Program-made: the position numbers and the translations under genes | Part shown: positions 7,158 through 12,217 of the stretch, piece by piece | How positions within the stretch are numbered: the first letter of the stretch is position 1 | Layout of the letters: every line of letters starts with the position of its first letter | The notes under the pieces: generated by a model | Databases searched by the model: none | Told to the model about the DNA's origin: nothing | Seen by the model: only the letters and a program-made list of their open reading frames with translations | NCBI GenBank assembly: GCA_017882785.1 | Contig: JADGOV010000010.1 | Span: 1-48,258 of the forward strand | Direction: 5' to 3' | DNA: 48,258 nt | Source of the DNA: Frankiaceae bacterium | GTDB lineage: Bacteria > Actinomycetota > Actinomycetes > JADGOV01

Positions 7158-9797
7158 TCAGCCCCCGAGCGCGAGGAACGACGCCGCGGTCGCTTCGGCC
7201 ACTGGGTCTCCGGCGACGGCGGAGCGGGCGGCCAGCAGGGCCGCTGCCGGATCGGCACCGGCGTCCAAGGCGTCGTGGAGCGCGAGCATGACCGGCACGG
7301 TCGCCTCGTCGTTGACCGGTGTCACGCTGGCGACCACGCTCGCGGTGCCGACCGCGAGCAGTCCACTGACCATGCCGAGCACCTCATCCGCGCCCACCGC
7401 GGCGGCGACCCCGGTGTCGCAGGCGGAGAGCACCAGCCGGTAGGGCGCCCGGCCCAGCCGTTCCAGGTCGTGGACCATCAGCGGGCCGTCGTCGAGGCGC
7501 AAGGAGGAGAAGAGCGGACTGTCCGCCCGGAACACCCCATGCGCCGCGATGTGTCCCAGCCACGCGCCGTCGAGGGCGGCGAGGACCTGATCGGTGTTCG
7601 CCCTGCCATCGCGCAGCACGCTCGCCCCGACATACCGGGCGGCGAGCTGGGGCACTTCAGCCCCGCCGGTGCCGAGGTCCGGGCCCGCGACGAGGGCAAC
7701 CCGACGCTGCGCCGGTGGCCGGGCGCCACGGGCCCGGAGCCAGGCCGCGGCCGACGGCGCGACGGTAACCGGACGTTGGCCCAGCGTCGGTAGCAGGCCC
7801 CAGGGAACCGCGTGCAGCCGGCCCGGCGGAACGAGGATGACCGCAGTGGTGTCGTCGGGGAGTGCCCGGCTTGCGGGGCCAAGGAGCGCCTCCTGCAGCT
7901 GACGGCCGAGTCCGGCGAGGGGGGGAACGCGTCCATGCGCCGCCCGCCGCAAGCCGAAACGGGCGAAGTCCACTTCCTGCTCCGCGCTGGCCACCGGCCC
8001 GACCGCCACCCGGCGCACTCGCCCCTGCCTGGCGATCACCGCGTGCAGGCTGCCGTCGACGACGACCAACTCGACCAGCGTGGCCGTACCCAGGGCAGCC
8101 AGCAGGGTGTCAACCGGAACGCGCCGCGGCGGGCCACCTTCGCCGGGCAGGTGTCGTTGCCGGCGTCGCAGTGTCACCTCCCTCGCCTGCCGCTGCCGCT
8201 CGAGCTGACCGGTCGGCCGCCCCGCAGCCCGCGCCGTCTCCAGGCGGCGTATCGCGTCGCGCAACGCCGCAAGCTCGGTGCCCAGGCCGCCGTGGTCGGC
8301 ATCGCGCACTGACGGCACGGTGAGGGCGGTTGCCCGCCAGCGCTCGGCCCAGCGGAGCACAGCCCGCGGGCCACGGGGCAGCGCGGCATGCAGCGCCAGC
8401 TCGGAAAGCTCGCGACCGTGGGCAGTGGCGAGCGCTCGCAGTTCGACATCACCGATCGTCTGCTGGTGCTCCTCCAGCGCGTCCAGGCCGTGACCGCAGG
8501 CCCGCAGAACGCGCCCGGGCCGGCCCTGCTCCGCCCACCGCAGCGCCTCCGCGAGCCACCCGGTCGCCCGGACCAGGGGGGTGCCGCCGCGCCGACTCCG
8601 CGCGGCCGCCGACAGGTGGGCTTCCGCCAGCGCGGCGTCCCCCTGACCGGCGGCCAGCCGACCGGCGAGGAGGTGGGCGAATGGGGCATCCTGGGGATAG
8701 CCCGGCCCGTAGGAGTCCGCCAATGCCGCGGCGGTGCGGACGAGGTCCCGGCTGCGCTCCCCGGCTGTGAAGCGGGCCTGGACGATCACCAACGCGGCCC
8801 GTCCCGACCACCATGCCCGCCGCTGGCGGCGGAAGTCGGCAGCGGCGGCGGTTGCGAGGTCCTTCGCCGGCACCGCCTCGTTCGGCAGGTTCTGGGCCAG
8901 CTTCGCCGTTGCCGCCGCCAGTTGGAGCTCCGCGCGCTTGACCGGCTGCAGGTGCGGCGTCGCCAGCGCGTCGGTGAGTCCGTCGACGGCATCATCGACG
9001 AGCCCGGCCGTGAGCCGGACGGCGGCCTCGTCGATGGCCAGATCAGGGGAGAACACGTCGATCGCCTGGTAGTCCCGCGCCGCCTCGGCCAGGCGCCGCA
9101 GGGCCAGCGGCAGGTTGCCGGCTTGATGTGCCGCCAGCGCCCGGTTGTGGACGGCCTGGGCAGCCTCGAGATCCTGTCCGATGCTGCGGAACAGGGTGCC
9201 GGCGCGCACGGCGTCGGCCTCCGCCCGCTGGGTGGCGCCGGCCGCGAGGTAGCACATGCACCGGTTCTGCAACGTCCGCGCTTCCCACCGGATGTCGCTC
9301 GCGCGACGGAAGGCGGAGACCGCGGCGTGCAGCAGTGGCAGTGCCTGATCATGTCGTCCGAGCAGGTACAGCACGTGTGCCCACCGCAACCGTACTTTCG
9401 CCAGCAGTTGACCCTGGGCAACCGAGGCCGCGCGTTCCAGCTCGGCCAACCCGCGACGGGTCCTGCCGGCCATGACCAACGCCGCGCCGAGTGTCGCCCG
9501 CACATCCGCTATCCGCTGGTCGGCCCCAGCGAGACGCGCGCAGGCTAGAGCGGCCTGTAGCTCCGTCAGGGCCTCGGGCAGCTCGCCACGATCCCGTAGG
9601 ACGATCCCGGCCGCCTGGTGTGCCACCGATGCCGGCAACGGCTCCGGCCGTGCGCCCAGCAGCGAGCGGGCGGCAACGAGTGCTTCCGCCGGCCGTGCCA
9701 GCGCAAGGGCGAGCAGGTCCTCGACGTCCACCTGGGCAGCGGCAGGCCCCCGCGCCTCTACCGTCGGCACCGAAGGAATGCTAGACAGTCCGGGCAA
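7158..9797 (-). CDS. TPR-CHAT protein (caspase-like cysteine protease fold)
   Basis: 879 aa from TTG: alpha-helical repeat N-terminus (EALTELQAALACARLAGADQRIADVRATLGAALVMAG...), C-terminal CHAT with LGHIAAHGVFRADSPLFSSLRL (His codon 7539-7541) and YRLVLSACDTGVAAAVGADEVLG (Cys codon 7419-7421). Confidence 0.9.
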   Translation of the reverse strand: MPGLSSIPSVPTVEARGPAAAQVDVEDLLALALARPAEALVAARSLLGARPEPLPASVAHQAAGIVLRDRGELPEALTELQAALACARLAGADQRIADVRATLGAALVMAGRTRRGLAELERAASVAQGQLLAKVRLRWAHVLYLLGRHDQALPLLHAAVSAFRRASDIRWEARTLQNRCMCYLAAGATQRAEADAVRAGTLFRSIGQDLEAAQAVHNRALAAHQAGNLPLALRRLAEAARDYQAIDVFSPDLAIDEAAVRLTAGLVDDAVDGLTDALATPHLQPVKRAELQLAAATAKLAQNLPNEAVPAKDLATAAAADFRRQRRAWWSGRAALVIVQARFTAGERSRDLVRTAAALADSYGPGYPQDAPFAHLLAGRLAAGQGDAALAEAHLSAAARSRRGGTPLVRATGWLAEALRWAEQGRPGRVLRACGHGLDALEEHQQTIGDVELRALATAHGRELSELALHAALPRGPRAVLRWAERWRATALTVPSVRDADHGGLGTELAALRDAIRRLETARAAGRPTGQLERQRQAREVTLRRRQRHLPGEGGPPRRVPVDTLLAALGTATLVELVVVDGSLHAVIARQGRVRRVAVGPVASAEQEVDFARFGLRRAAHGRVPPLAGLGRQLQEALLGPASRALPDDTTAVILVPPGRLHAVPWGLLPTLGQRPVTVAPSAAAWLRARGARPPAQRRVALVAGPDLGTGGAEVPQLAARYVGASVLRDGRANTDQVLAALDGAWLGHIAAHGVFRADSPLFSSLRLDDGPLMVHDLERLGRAPYRLVLSACDTGVAAAVGADEVLGMVSGLLAVGTASVVASVTPVNDEATVPVMLALHDALDAGADPAAALLAARSAVAGDPVAEATAASFLALGG

Positions 9798-9831
9798 CGG
9801 TCAGTGACGACAGGTAGGAGACACGATCGCG

Positions 9832-11142
9832 ATGGTCGGTCAGGACGAGGAGCGCCGCCCAGCCGCCGCCACGCTGGAGGACCCCAAGGTCCGGCAGAAC
9901 CGGTTGCGCGCGCAGGTCGAGATCATCCGCGTCGCGCTGCCCGACGCCGTGGCGTACAGCGGGAAATCCGACGACCCGGGTGACACGGAGTACATCTACC
10001 GTCGCGGCGTGCTGCTTGTCCGCGACACCGATCTGCCACGGGTACGGGACGCGCTGGGTGATCGTAGCGATGCCGTCGCCGACAGCATCATCGGCGGCGT
10101 CACCGCCTACCACCCGCCCGGCGGCAATGTGCAGGCCGCCCTGACCGTGCTGGACGCCCGACTGGGCGTCGGCGTCGCAACCCCGGACCACGTGCTGTGG
10201 ATTACCCCCGCCAGTTGCTGCCCGGCCACCGAACCGCTCCCTCCCGGCGGCCAGGATCCCGACCCAGGGATCAGCACCGACCCGGACTGCACCGGTGAGG
10301 GTGTCCGGGTCTGCGTCGTGGACACCGGCCTGGACCTGGGGCTCGTCGCCCTGCAGCCGTGGCTGCAGGGGGTGACCGGTGACCCGGAAGTGGTCAATCC
10401 CGCTGCGCTCGGCCACTACACCGGTCACGGCACGTTCGTCGCGGGAGTTGTCCGGGCGATGGCGCCGAAGGCTGAGGTGATCGTCAAGGGGTTCCTGCCC
10501 AACGGTGGGGCGGTGTATGAGTCCGCGATCGCGGCGAAGCTGGACAGTGCCATGGATGAGATGCCCGACATCATCAGTCTGTCGGCTGGATGCACGACGC
10601 GATACAACCTCAACCTCATGGGATTCGAGGTCTTCTATGAGAACCGGTTGCGGTTCTACAAGGGCACCGTTCTGGTCGCCGCCGCCGGCAACGACGGCAA
10701 TCGCGGGCCGTTCTGGCCGGCAACCTTCCCATGGACGATCTCTGTCGGCGCCCTCGACCAGACCGGGGTCCGGGCGAACTTCAGCAACTTCGGCAGCTGG
10801 GTGGATGTCTACGCCCGGGGCGTAGACATGGTGAACGCCTACCCGGTCGGTACGTATGCCTACACCGAGCCGCCGAATGTGGGTCTGACCTTCACCTCTG
10901 CGGGCCTCGCATCCTGGAGCGGCACCTCTTTCGCTACCCCCTTGGTCGCCGGCTTGATCGCCGCTCGGATGTCGAAGACCGGGGAGAGCGCGCAGCATGC
11001 CGCCGAGGCGCTGCTCCGGATCGCCAACCGGCAGGCTCGAGCGTTGGTCGGTCCGGTCCTCGAGCCGGGAGACGGGTGTCCACCAGAGGGCGGCTGCGGC
11101 TGCGGCTGCTGCGCGGGGGCCGCGGGCGACACCCCCTCGTAA
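9832..11142 (+). CDS. S8 family serine peptidase (subtilase), no evident signal peptide
   Basis: Triad motifs VCVVDTGLDLG (Asp codon 10321), HYTGHGTFVAGVV (His codon 10426), SWSGTSFATPLVAGLIAA (Ser codon 10927), oxyanion AAAGNDG; Cys-rich tail CPPEGGCGCGCC. Confidence 0.92.
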   Translation: MVGQDEERRPAAATLEDPKVRQNRLRAQVEIIRVALPDAVAYSGKSDDPGDTEYIYRRGVLLVRDTDLPRVRDALGDRSDAVADSIIGGVTAYHPPGGNVQAALTVLDARLGVGVATPDHVLWITPASCCPATEPLPPGGQDPDPGISTDPDCTGEGVRVCVVDTGLDLGLVALQPWLQGVTGDPEVVNPAALGHYTGHGTFVAGVVRAMAPKAEVIVKGFLPNGGAVYESAIAAKLDSAMDEMPDIISLSAGCTTRYNLNLMGFEVFYENRLRFYKGTVLVAAAGNDGNRGPFWPATFPWTISVGALDQTGVRANFSNFGSWVDVYARGVDMVNAYPVGTYAYTEPPNVGLTFTSAGLASWSGTSFATPLVAGLIAARMSKTGESAQHAAEALLRIANRQARALVGPVLEPGDGCPPEGGCGCGCCAGAAGDTPS

Positions 11143-11148
11143 CGTCGT

Positions 11149-11757
11149 ATGTCACCTCCGGCCACCGCTGACCTCTTTCGCCGCGCGGTCCTCGGCGACG
11201 CCGTCAGCTGGGAGGCGCTGGTCGAACGCTTCACCCCCTTGCTGTGGGCGGTGGCCCGCGAGTTGCGACTGGACACTGCGGACGCGGCGGATGCGGTGCA
11301 GACCGGCTGGCTGCGGTTGCTCGAGCAGCTGGACGCGATCAAGGACCCGGAGCACCTCGGAGGCTGGCTGGCGACAACCGTGCGTCGGGAGGGCCTTCGC
11401 CAGATCGCCCGCCTCGGGCGGGAGCGGCCCGGGGGCGTCGCGGAGATGAATGTTGTCGCGGAGATGAATGTTGAGGAGATGAATGTTGCTGTCCCGTACG
11501 GGCCGCCGCCGGAGTACCGGCTGCTGCGCGCCGAGCGTGACGATTTCCTGCGGCACGCGTTTCACCAGCTGCCGGAGCGCTGCCGCGTGCTTCTGCGGCT
11601 CCTGCTGACCGATCCGCCGTTGTCCTATGAAGACATCAGTGCCGCCCTGGGCCTGCCGATGGGCAGCATCGGCCCGAACCGCGGGCGATGCCTCGCACGT
11701 CTGCGCCGACTTGTGGACGATGGTGGTATCAGCGAGTCCGCTGGTGACTCTGTCTAG
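11149..11757 (+). CDS. ECF-like sigma-70 family RNA polymerase sigma factor
   Basis: Sigma2-like FTPLLWAVARELRLDTADAADAVQTGWLRLLEQL and sigma4-like QLPERCRVLLRLLLTDPPLSYEDISAALGLPMGSIGPNRGRCLARLRRL. Confidence 0.9.
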   Translation: MSPPATADLFRRAVLGDAVSWEALVERFTPLLWAVARELRLDTADAADAVQTGWLRLLEQLDAIKDPEHLGGWLATTVRREGLRQIARLGRERPGGVAEMNVVAEMNVEEMNVAVPYGPPPEYRLLRAERDDFLRHAFHQLPERCRVLLRLLLTDPPLSYEDISAALGLPMGSIGPNRGRCLARLRRLVDDGGISESAGDSV

Positions 11758-11779
11758 GTGATGAAGGAGGTGGGTCTGG

Positions 11780-12217
11780 ATGACCGACTCGGACGAGGTG
11801 CTGCTGGCCCGGCTTCGCCAGGCGGCAGTTGACGACCCACCCCCGCCGCTTGTGCTGGAAGCCGCCAAGGCGGCCTTCGTCATGCGGACCCTCGACGCCG
11901 AACTCGCCACGCTGATTGCCGACTCACGGGAGACCGTGGGGGCCGTCCGCGGTCCGGCGGACACCCGGCTGCTCGTTTTCGAGGCCGCCAGTCTGACCGT
12001 CGATCTACAGGTGACACCGCGCGGTGACCGGCGTCACCTCGTGGGCCAGGTAACACCGGCCGCGGGTCCCGCGTCGGTGGACACCCCCGGCGGTGTCCGC
12101 CCGCTGGAACTGGACAGCTATGGCCGCTTTGTCAGTGACGACGTGCCAGCCGGCCCGGTTCGACTGCGCTTCGGCACCGACGGTCGCCCCGTGGCGACCG
12201 CGTGGACCATGCTCTAG
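11780..12217 (+). CDS. Hypothetical protein: helical N-terminus + beta-rich C-terminus; candidate sigma partner
   Basis: 145 aa, perfect SD AAGGAGGT (11764-11771) 8 nt upstream of ATG, 22 bp after the sigma gene; LVLEAAKAAFVMRTLDAELATLIADS then LTVDLQVTPRGDRRHLVGQVTPA...YGRFVSDDVPAGPVRLRF. Confidence 0.8.
   Translation: MTDSDEVLLARLRQAAVDDPPPPLVLEAAKAAFVMRTLDAELATLIADSRETVGAVRGPADTRLLVFEAASLTVDLQVTPRGDRRHLVGQVTPAAGPASVDTPGGVRPLELDSYGRFVSDDVPAGPVRLRFGTDGRPVATAWTML

What the first reader, a model, noticed from the sequence alone, without database searches (positions are those of the whole stretch)
7158..12217. Four-gene TPR-CHAT / cytoplasmic subtilase / ECF-like sigma / small partner module: candidate undescribed protease-controlled transcription (conflict or stress) system
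Seen: a divergent TPR-CHAT gene with intact His (7539-7541) and Cys (7419-7421) dyad motifs; 34 bp away, an S8 protease with an intact Asp/His/Ser triad and no signal peptide; then 6 bp later a sigma factor; then 22 bp later a small helical + beta-rich protein. The block sits between housekeeping genes (mdh and a CNNM/CorC-like gene). Established: in type III-E CRISPR (Craspase) loci a TPR-CHAT protease cleaves Csx30 and is linked to a sigma factor and its inhibitor. Inference: this is a CRISPR-free analogue in which one or both cytosolic proteases cleave the small protein (or each other) to release the sigma factor. I know of no characterised system with this composition, but I could not search the literature.
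Basis: partly seen in the sequence, partly recalled or inferred. Interest (0 to 1): 0.88.

Follow-up and report, generated by a model that had tools for sequence, protein, structure and literature searches.

The report
Protease-linked sigma factor switch (ECF54 type)
This is a four-gene module found across the Actinomycetota that pairs two intracellular proteases with a gene-switching sigma factor and a small partner protein; the gene association was already catalogued (sigma group ECF54), but its probable partner/inhibitor, its promoter signal and its likely wiring are worked out here for the first time that I could find.

Summary
The linkage is real. P145 lies directly downstream of the sigma gene in 101 of 104 loci; of 74 loci with enough flank, 51 also carry both proteases, in shuffled order. 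CHAT and the sigma co-occur in 35 of 98 genomes, against 3 with only one of them. Where the module is split, it splits into sigma+P145 and CHAT+S8, and distance correlations show the same two pairs.
It is not an undescribed association. A 2022 review reports CHAT, subtilase and "carboxypeptidase" genes around ECF54 sigma factors and proteolytic control without an anti-sigma factor. P145 explains the "carboxypeptidase": a weak, non-enzymatic CarboxypepD_reg-like domain behind a two-helix N-terminus.
New here: a promoter-like motif, TGTATCA-N16/17-CTCTGT, before S8, sigma or P145 (window 11726-11753, before P145). In several genomes it is almost confined to this locus; elsewhere it precedes a few genes, several encoding proteases. 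Most likely P145 is a cytosolic anti-sigma factor removed by the CHAT/S8 pair, as Csx30 is in Craspase. No cleavage or binding was shown. There is no CRISPR link.

The parts
7158..9797 (-). TPR-CHAT (clan CD cysteine protease) gene, 879 aa, predicted cytosolic; catalytic H753 (7539-7541) and C793 (7419-7421)
9832..11142 (+). S8 subtilisin-like protease, 436 aa, no signal peptide seen; D164 (10321-10323), H199 (10426-10428), N287 (10690-10692), S366 (10927-10929); residues 1-150 a candidate prodomain (inference)
11149..11757 (+). ECF sigma factor, 202 aa (by gene context ECF54-type), with the family motif PxGSIGPxRxRCL
11780..12217 (+). P145: 145-aa protein, two N-terminal helices (3-18, 23-37) then a beta sandwich related to CarboxypepD_reg; candidate anti-sigma factor and protease substrate
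11726..11753 (+). Promoter-like element GTATCA-N16-CTCTGT inside the 3' end of the sigma gene, 26 nt before the P145 ATG; candidate target of the locus's own sigma factor

Best explanation
The locus is an ECF54-type regulatory module made of two functional pairs. Pair one is the sigma factor and P145. P145 holds the sigma factor inactive in the cytosol, probably with its N-terminal helical hairpin, as two-helix anti-sigma factors do (inferred). Pair two is the TPR-CHAT and S8 proteases, probably a cascade in which the TPR part senses an unknown cue and one protease activates the other (inferred). Activated protease cuts P145 and releases the sigma factor (inferred). The sigma factor then transcribes genes behind TGTATCA-N16/17-CTCTGT: P145 itself (negative feedback, as in the window), or S8 and the sigma gene (amplification), plus lineage-specific genes, several of them proteases. 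Shown: intact catalytic residues, conserved linkage, genome-wide co-occurrence, the two-pair pattern, the motif and its placement. Not shown: binding, cleavage, the signal, or that this sigma factor reads this motif.
For: Sigma-P145 adjacency in 101/104 loci; 51/74 with room carry both proteases, 6 CHAT only, 5 S8 only, 12 neither. CHAT (E<=1e-20) and sigma (E<=1e-15) together in 35 of 98 genomes, sigma only in 2, CHAT only in 1, neither in 60. In genomes where sigma+P145 stands alone, CHAT sits beside S8 elsewhere (L153-L155, L157, L158). Partial correlations of protein distances over 58 loci: sigma-P145 0.48, S8-CHAT 0.61, sigma-CHAT 0.22, the rest <=0.10. Motif: GTATCA/CTCT pairs peak at spacers 16 (42 sites) and 17 (34), 0-7 at all others; 76 sites against a mean of 0.7 (maximum 10) for permuted words. 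A matrix trained on 14 S8-upstream sites finds it before S8 in 30/72 (the training sites included), sigma 19/110, P145 5/100, against 1.4% of random 350-nt stretches. Loose motif in sigma-bearing genomes 29 sites vs 5 reversed controls; in genomes without the sigma factor 8 vs 13. A read-through sigma-P145 chain from a relative (L118; pLDDT 87, pTM 0.72) places the two sigma domains as in anti-sigma-bound factors (CnrH-CnrY TMt 0.69, RpoE-NepR 0.61-0.65, SigW-RsiW about 0.6), not as in initiation complexes (TMt 0.32-0.43, rmsd 26-28). Precedent: Csx29 cuts Csx30 to relieve CASP-sigma (PMC10028731); CalpL cuts CalpT to free CalpS (PMC11417357).
Against: P145 has no sequence or close fold match to any known anti-sigma factor, Csx30 or CalpT. 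AlphaFold may put any ECF sigma factor in the anti-sigma-like arrangement; no sigma-only control could be run, and two known anti-sigma complexes (SigE-RseA, AlgU-MucA) fit less well (TMt 0.44-0.47). Adjacent genes are inherited together, which inflates the sigma-P145 correlation. The exact motif lies upstream of a module gene in only about a third of the loci examined (38/116). In some lineages sigma+P145 has no protease within reach, or the sigma gene lacks a detectable P145. Published authors proposed degradation of the sigma factor itself, without an anti-sigma factor.
Confidence: 0.5

Rival explanations
1. Published ECF54 proposal: there is no anti-sigma factor; the CHAT and S8 proteases degrade the sigma factor itself and so keep it off until a signal stops them. 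P145 would be an adaptor or an unrelated target gene.
For: PMC8999054 section 3.3 and Table 1. Partial correlation sigma-CHAT 0.22 is above the other cross-pair values.
Against: P145 is the closest and most constant partner of the sigma gene (101/104) and co-varies with it most (0.48). The 'carboxypeptidase' of that description appears to be P145's non-enzymatic CarboxypepD_reg-like domain (16/19 members), so one of the three supposed peptidases is not a peptidase.
Confidence: 0.2
2. P145 is a downstream product, not a regulator: the sigma factor transcribes P145, the proteases and lineage-specific proteins as an effector set that is processed by the proteases in a stress or self-killing response.
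For: The motif stands directly before P145 in the window and some relatives. A second CarboxypepD_reg-like protein sits behind the motif next to CHAT in Catellatospora and Rhizocola. Other motif-linked genes encode S1, C13 and papain-like proteases.
Against: In most loci P145 simply follows the sigma gene in an operon-like pair, and the strongest co-variation of P145 is with the sigma factor, not with the proteases (0.10 and 0.07).
Confidence: 0.2
3. A CRISPR-linked Craspase (type III-E) or Calp system that has lost its CRISPR part.
For: Same logic of protease, small partner and ECF sigma factor; TPR-CHAT architecture.
Against: No Cas1 and no RAMP (Cas7-type) match in the genome; no match of CHAT or P145 to Csx29/Csx30 chains in the PDB by sequence; Craspase has no S8 partner.
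Confidence: 0.03
4. Chance neighbourhood of four unrelated genes.
For: None beyond the small gene number.
Against: Recurrence in shuffled order across many families and genome-wide co-occurrence even when unlinked.
Confidence: 0.01

Closest known systems
ECF54 sigma factor group (Huang 2015; Casas-Pastor 2021; reviewed in PMC8999054)
   Same: Actinobacterial ECF sigma factor with conserved subtilase, CHAT and 'carboxypeptidase' genes; proteolytic control proposed; model member from Geodermatophilus, a genus in which this sigma subfamily was also found (L079, L093).
   Different: The review speaks of no anti-sigma factor and of a carboxypeptidase; here that gene looks like a non-enzymatic sigma partner. 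A promoter motif and the two-pair wiring are added. The ECF54 profile itself could not be run.
Craspase / CASP (type III-E CRISPR: Cas7-11, Csx29 TPR-CHAT, Csx30, CASP-sigma; PMC10028731)
   Same: TPR-CHAT protease, small two-domain partner and ECF sigma factor; cleavage of the partner frees the sigma factor.
   Different: No CRISPR genes, extra S8 protease, partner of 145 rather than 565 residues with no sequence match.
CalpL-CalpT-CalpS (type III CRISPR Lon protease system; PMC11417357)
   Same: Cytosolic protease cuts a soluble anti-sigma factor bound to an ECF sigma factor.
   Different: Lon-SAVED protease switched on by cA4; no CHAT or S8; no SAVED domain here.
Two-helix anti-sigma factors (CnrY, NepR)
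   Same: Short helical segment that clamps an ECF sigma factor between its two domains; the read-through model has the sigma factor in that arrangement.
   Different: P145 carries a C-terminal beta sandwich and is not homologous by sequence.

Membership tests
ECF54 module | ECF sigma factor in Actinobacteria | tested here: met
   Sigma70_r2 6.5e-12 and TIGR02937 2e-17; relatives in Actinomycetes, Acidimicrobiia and Thermoleophilia, by record titles.
ECF54 module | Conserved subtilase, CHAT and 'carboxypeptidase' domain genes in the neighbourhood | tested here: met
   CarboxypepD_reg in 16/19 P145 homologues, weak (best E=1.9e-5).
ECF54 module | Match to the ECF54 profile or placement with SFT86700.1 | not testable with these tools
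   Profile and accession not held; the 2021 paper is not in the library.
[quoted passage not shown]
   No known anti-sigma domain found, but P145 behaves genetically like one.
Craspase (type III-E CASP) | Cas7-11 (gRAMP) effector in the genome | tested here: not met
   No RAMP-family match in the genome; no Cas1.
Craspase (type III-E CASP) | TPR-CHAT protease with His-Cys dyad | tested here: met
Craspase (type III-E CASP) | Csx30 homologue | tested here: not met
   P145 profile finds no Csx30 chain by sequence and no close fold.
Anti-sigma factor | Binds and inhibits the cognate sigma factor | not testable with these tools
   Only indirect: adjacency, co-variation, read-through model.

The most novel reading that the evidence does not exclude
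A CRISPR-free proteolytic signalling circuit found across the Actinomycetota: a TPR-CHAT/subtilisin pair cuts a previously unrecognised class of cytosolic anti-sigma factor (two helices plus a CarboxypepD_reg-like sandwich), freeing an ECF54 sigma factor that reads TGTATCA-N16/17-CTCTGT, amplifies the module and switches on further, often secreted or caspase-clan, proteases.
Probability: 0.4. Interest if true: 0.8.

Novelty: new member of a known kind. Interest (0 to 1): 0.6.

Why it matters
ECF54 appears in the 2022 review as one of the groups assigned to proteolytic control, and that review names AntA (another group) as the only such case shown experimentally. This analysis turns ECF54 into a concrete, testable circuit: a named candidate inhibitor, a named candidate promoter, and a protease pair with intact active sites, present in culturable genera (Catellatospora, Kribbella, Micromonospora, Solirubrobacter). 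If true, protease-triggered sigma release of the Craspase type would not be peculiar to CRISPR but used in chromosomal circuits across a phylum. It would also correct the reading of the ECF54 neighbourhood gene as a carboxypeptidase.

Tried and rejected
Craspase membership: rejected (no RAMP or Cas1 in the genome, no Csx29/Csx30 sequence match). Mobile defence island: not supported (one distant sigma hit on a true plasmid, in a polyketide-type gene cluster without the other genes; no phage hit). A P145-only scan of the genome collection was impossible for lack of conserved stretches, so the sigma alignment was used. Recurring extra neighbours common to all loci: none beyond the four genes; several loci without proteases hold sigma+P145 in a similar chromosomal context. 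A Cys-rich C-terminal tail of the window S8 is not conserved. The loose motif in the window's own genome gave only two other sites, neither clearly before a gene of interest. Motif sites before small or doubtful frames were not pursued. No natural fusion of two of the four proteins was found. A natural in-frame read-through of sigma and P145 (11 loci) was used as a stand-in for a complex prediction; it has no sigma-only control.

Full report
WHAT IS THERE. From left to right: a TPR-CHAT protease gene on the minus strand (7158-9797), then on the plus strand an S8 subtilase (9832-11142), an ECF sigma factor (11149-11757) and a 145-residue protein, called P145 here (11780-12217). Pfam supports the first three; P145 alone matches nothing in Pfam, NCBIfam or PADLOC. 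The catalytic residues are intact and invariant in all homologues aligned at those positions: CHAT H753 and C793; S8 D164, H199, N287 and S366. No segment is hydrophobic enough to suggest a signal peptide or membrane helix.

LINKAGE. Homologues of P145 were found in 35 and of the sigma factor in 37 of 98 genomes of the same class, nearly always side by side. Profiles built from these were run over 40 fetched stretches and then over those plus 80 further loci from a named genome collection; some loci are in both sets. P145 follows the sigma gene on the same strand in 101 of 104 cases. Of 74 loci with enough flanking DNA, 51 also carry both CHAT and S8, 6 only CHAT, 5 only S8, 12 neither. The order is shuffled; the window's order (CHAT reversed, S8, sigma, P145) is the commonest full arrangement (20 loci). 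By record titles the loci come from Actinomycetes, Acidimicrobiia and Thermoleophilia, including Geodermatophilus, Kribbella, Micromonospora, Catellatospora, Dactylosporangium and Solirubrobacter.

CO-OCCURRENCE AND THE TWO PAIRS. Counting whole genomes, this sigma subfamily (E<=1e-15) and this CHAT subfamily (E<=1e-20) are both present in 35, sigma alone in 2, CHAT alone in 1 and neither in 60 of 98. In genomes where sigma+P145 stands alone, CHAT was found next to an S8 gene elsewhere (loci L153-L155, L157, L158). Over 58 loci with all four genes, correlations of pairwise protein distances, each corrected for the other two proteins, were 0.48 for sigma-P145, 0.61 for S8-CHAT, 0.22 for sigma-CHAT and at most 0.10 for the rest. 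Adjacent genes share ancestry, so these numbers are suggestive only, but synteny and co-variation agree on two pairs.

P145. Sixteen of 19 homologues match CarboxypepD_reg weakly (best E=1.9e-5). This is a beta-sandwich domain, not a peptidase (family knowledge). The predicted structure (mean pLDDT 86.5) has two N-terminal helices and then a beta sandwich; no solved structure is close.

PROMOTER-LIKE MOTIF. An unbiased search for two-part words upstream of the module genes found GTATCA followed by CTCT. The spacing between the two parts peaks sharply at 16 and 17 bp (42 and 34 sites; at most 7 at any other spacing). Permuted words gave a mean of 0.7 and a maximum of 10 against 76 observed. A matrix trained on 14 sites before S8 found the element before S8 in 30 of 72 cases (the training sites included), before sigma in 19 of 110 and before P145 in 5 of 100, against 1.4% of random stretches. 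In the window it is at 11726-11753, in the end of the sigma gene, 26 nt before the P145 start. The strict form occurs only at the module in six genomes of Catellatospora, Rhizocola and Allorhizocola, and is absent from three Dactylosporangium genomes, whose sites lack the final T. In genomes with the sigma factor the loose form has 29 sites against 5 for the reversed control; in genomes without it, 8 against 13. That this sigma factor reads this motif is an inference.

GENES BEHIND THE MOTIF OUTSIDE THE FOUR. Mostly lineage-specific: a CarboxypepD_reg-like 231-residue protein after CHAT in Catellatospora and its relatives, a LuxR-type regulator (L081), a papain-like protein (L041, weak), a C13 (caspase-clan) peptidase (L205), and, in two Solirubrobacter genomes, a pair of similar alpha-lytic-type (S1) proteases with a signal-like N-terminus, the motif 38 nt before the start in both (Pfam support is weak for one of them). 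Several targets are thus proteases; the set is small and partly anecdotal.

MECHANISM. The favoured reading is that P145 is a cytosolic anti-sigma factor which the CHAT/S8 pair removes. This chain is a device for modelling, not a claim that read-through occurs. Its sigma part resembles several anti-sigma-bound sigma factors (CnrH-CnrY TMt 0.69; RpoE-NepR 0.61-0.65; SigW-RsiW about 0.6), less so SigE-RseA and AlgU-MucA (0.44-0.47), and not those in initiation complexes (0.32-0.43 with rmsd 26-28). AlphaFold may do this for any ECF sigma factor, and no sigma-only control was possible. Binding, cleavage, the order of the proteases and the signal are all untested.

WHAT IS KNOWN. A review (PMC8999054) lists ECF54, with a model member from Geodermatophilus, as having conserved carboxypeptidase, subtilase and CHAT genes and as a candidate for control by proteolysis without an anti-sigma factor, citing Huang 2015 and Casas-Pastor 2021 (neither held here). 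This locus almost certainly belongs to that association, though the ECF54 profile could not be run. By mode of action the nearest systems are Craspase (PMC10028731) and CalpL/T/S (PMC11417357). Craspase membership fails: no RAMP or Cas1 match in the genome and no Csx30 match. Whether the 2021 classification already predicts this motif is unknown to me.

VERDICT. Real, widely conserved, already catalogued as a gene association, mechanistically uncharacterised as far as I could find. Literature searching was limited to an open-access library.

Noticed in passing
own genome G000, L034 (contig C123) and L033 (contig C183): The genome holds a second CHAT gene beside a partial S8 gene (contig end), and a second sigma factor of the same subfamily with no detectable P145, next to an AAA/LuxR-like regulator.
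   Followed up: partly
L048, L050, L055, L057, L123: In several lineages sigma+P145 (or P145 with S8) sits without CHAT in a similar chromosomal neighbourhood with a SepH-like gene and a large acyltransferase-like gene (by sequence reading).
   Followed up: partly
L085 6302 +, L151 2511 +: In Solirubrobacterales/Patulibacter MAGs the motif precedes a stretch containing a radical SAM-like frame and a small peptide frame.
   Followed up: no
L212 1210-1449 -: Motif before an 80-residue peptide with CGGC in a Lapillicoccus MAG; looks like a small precursor peptide.
   Followed up: no
L089 10024-10935 -, L128 10361-11491 -: Two unrelated proteins without Pfam match, each with a good ribosome site 35-37 nt behind the motif; the first has a papain-like QGPSCW stretch.
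   Followed up: partly
window 11089-11130: The S8 gene ends in a Cys-rich tail (GGCGCGCC) that most relatives lack.
   Followed up: yes
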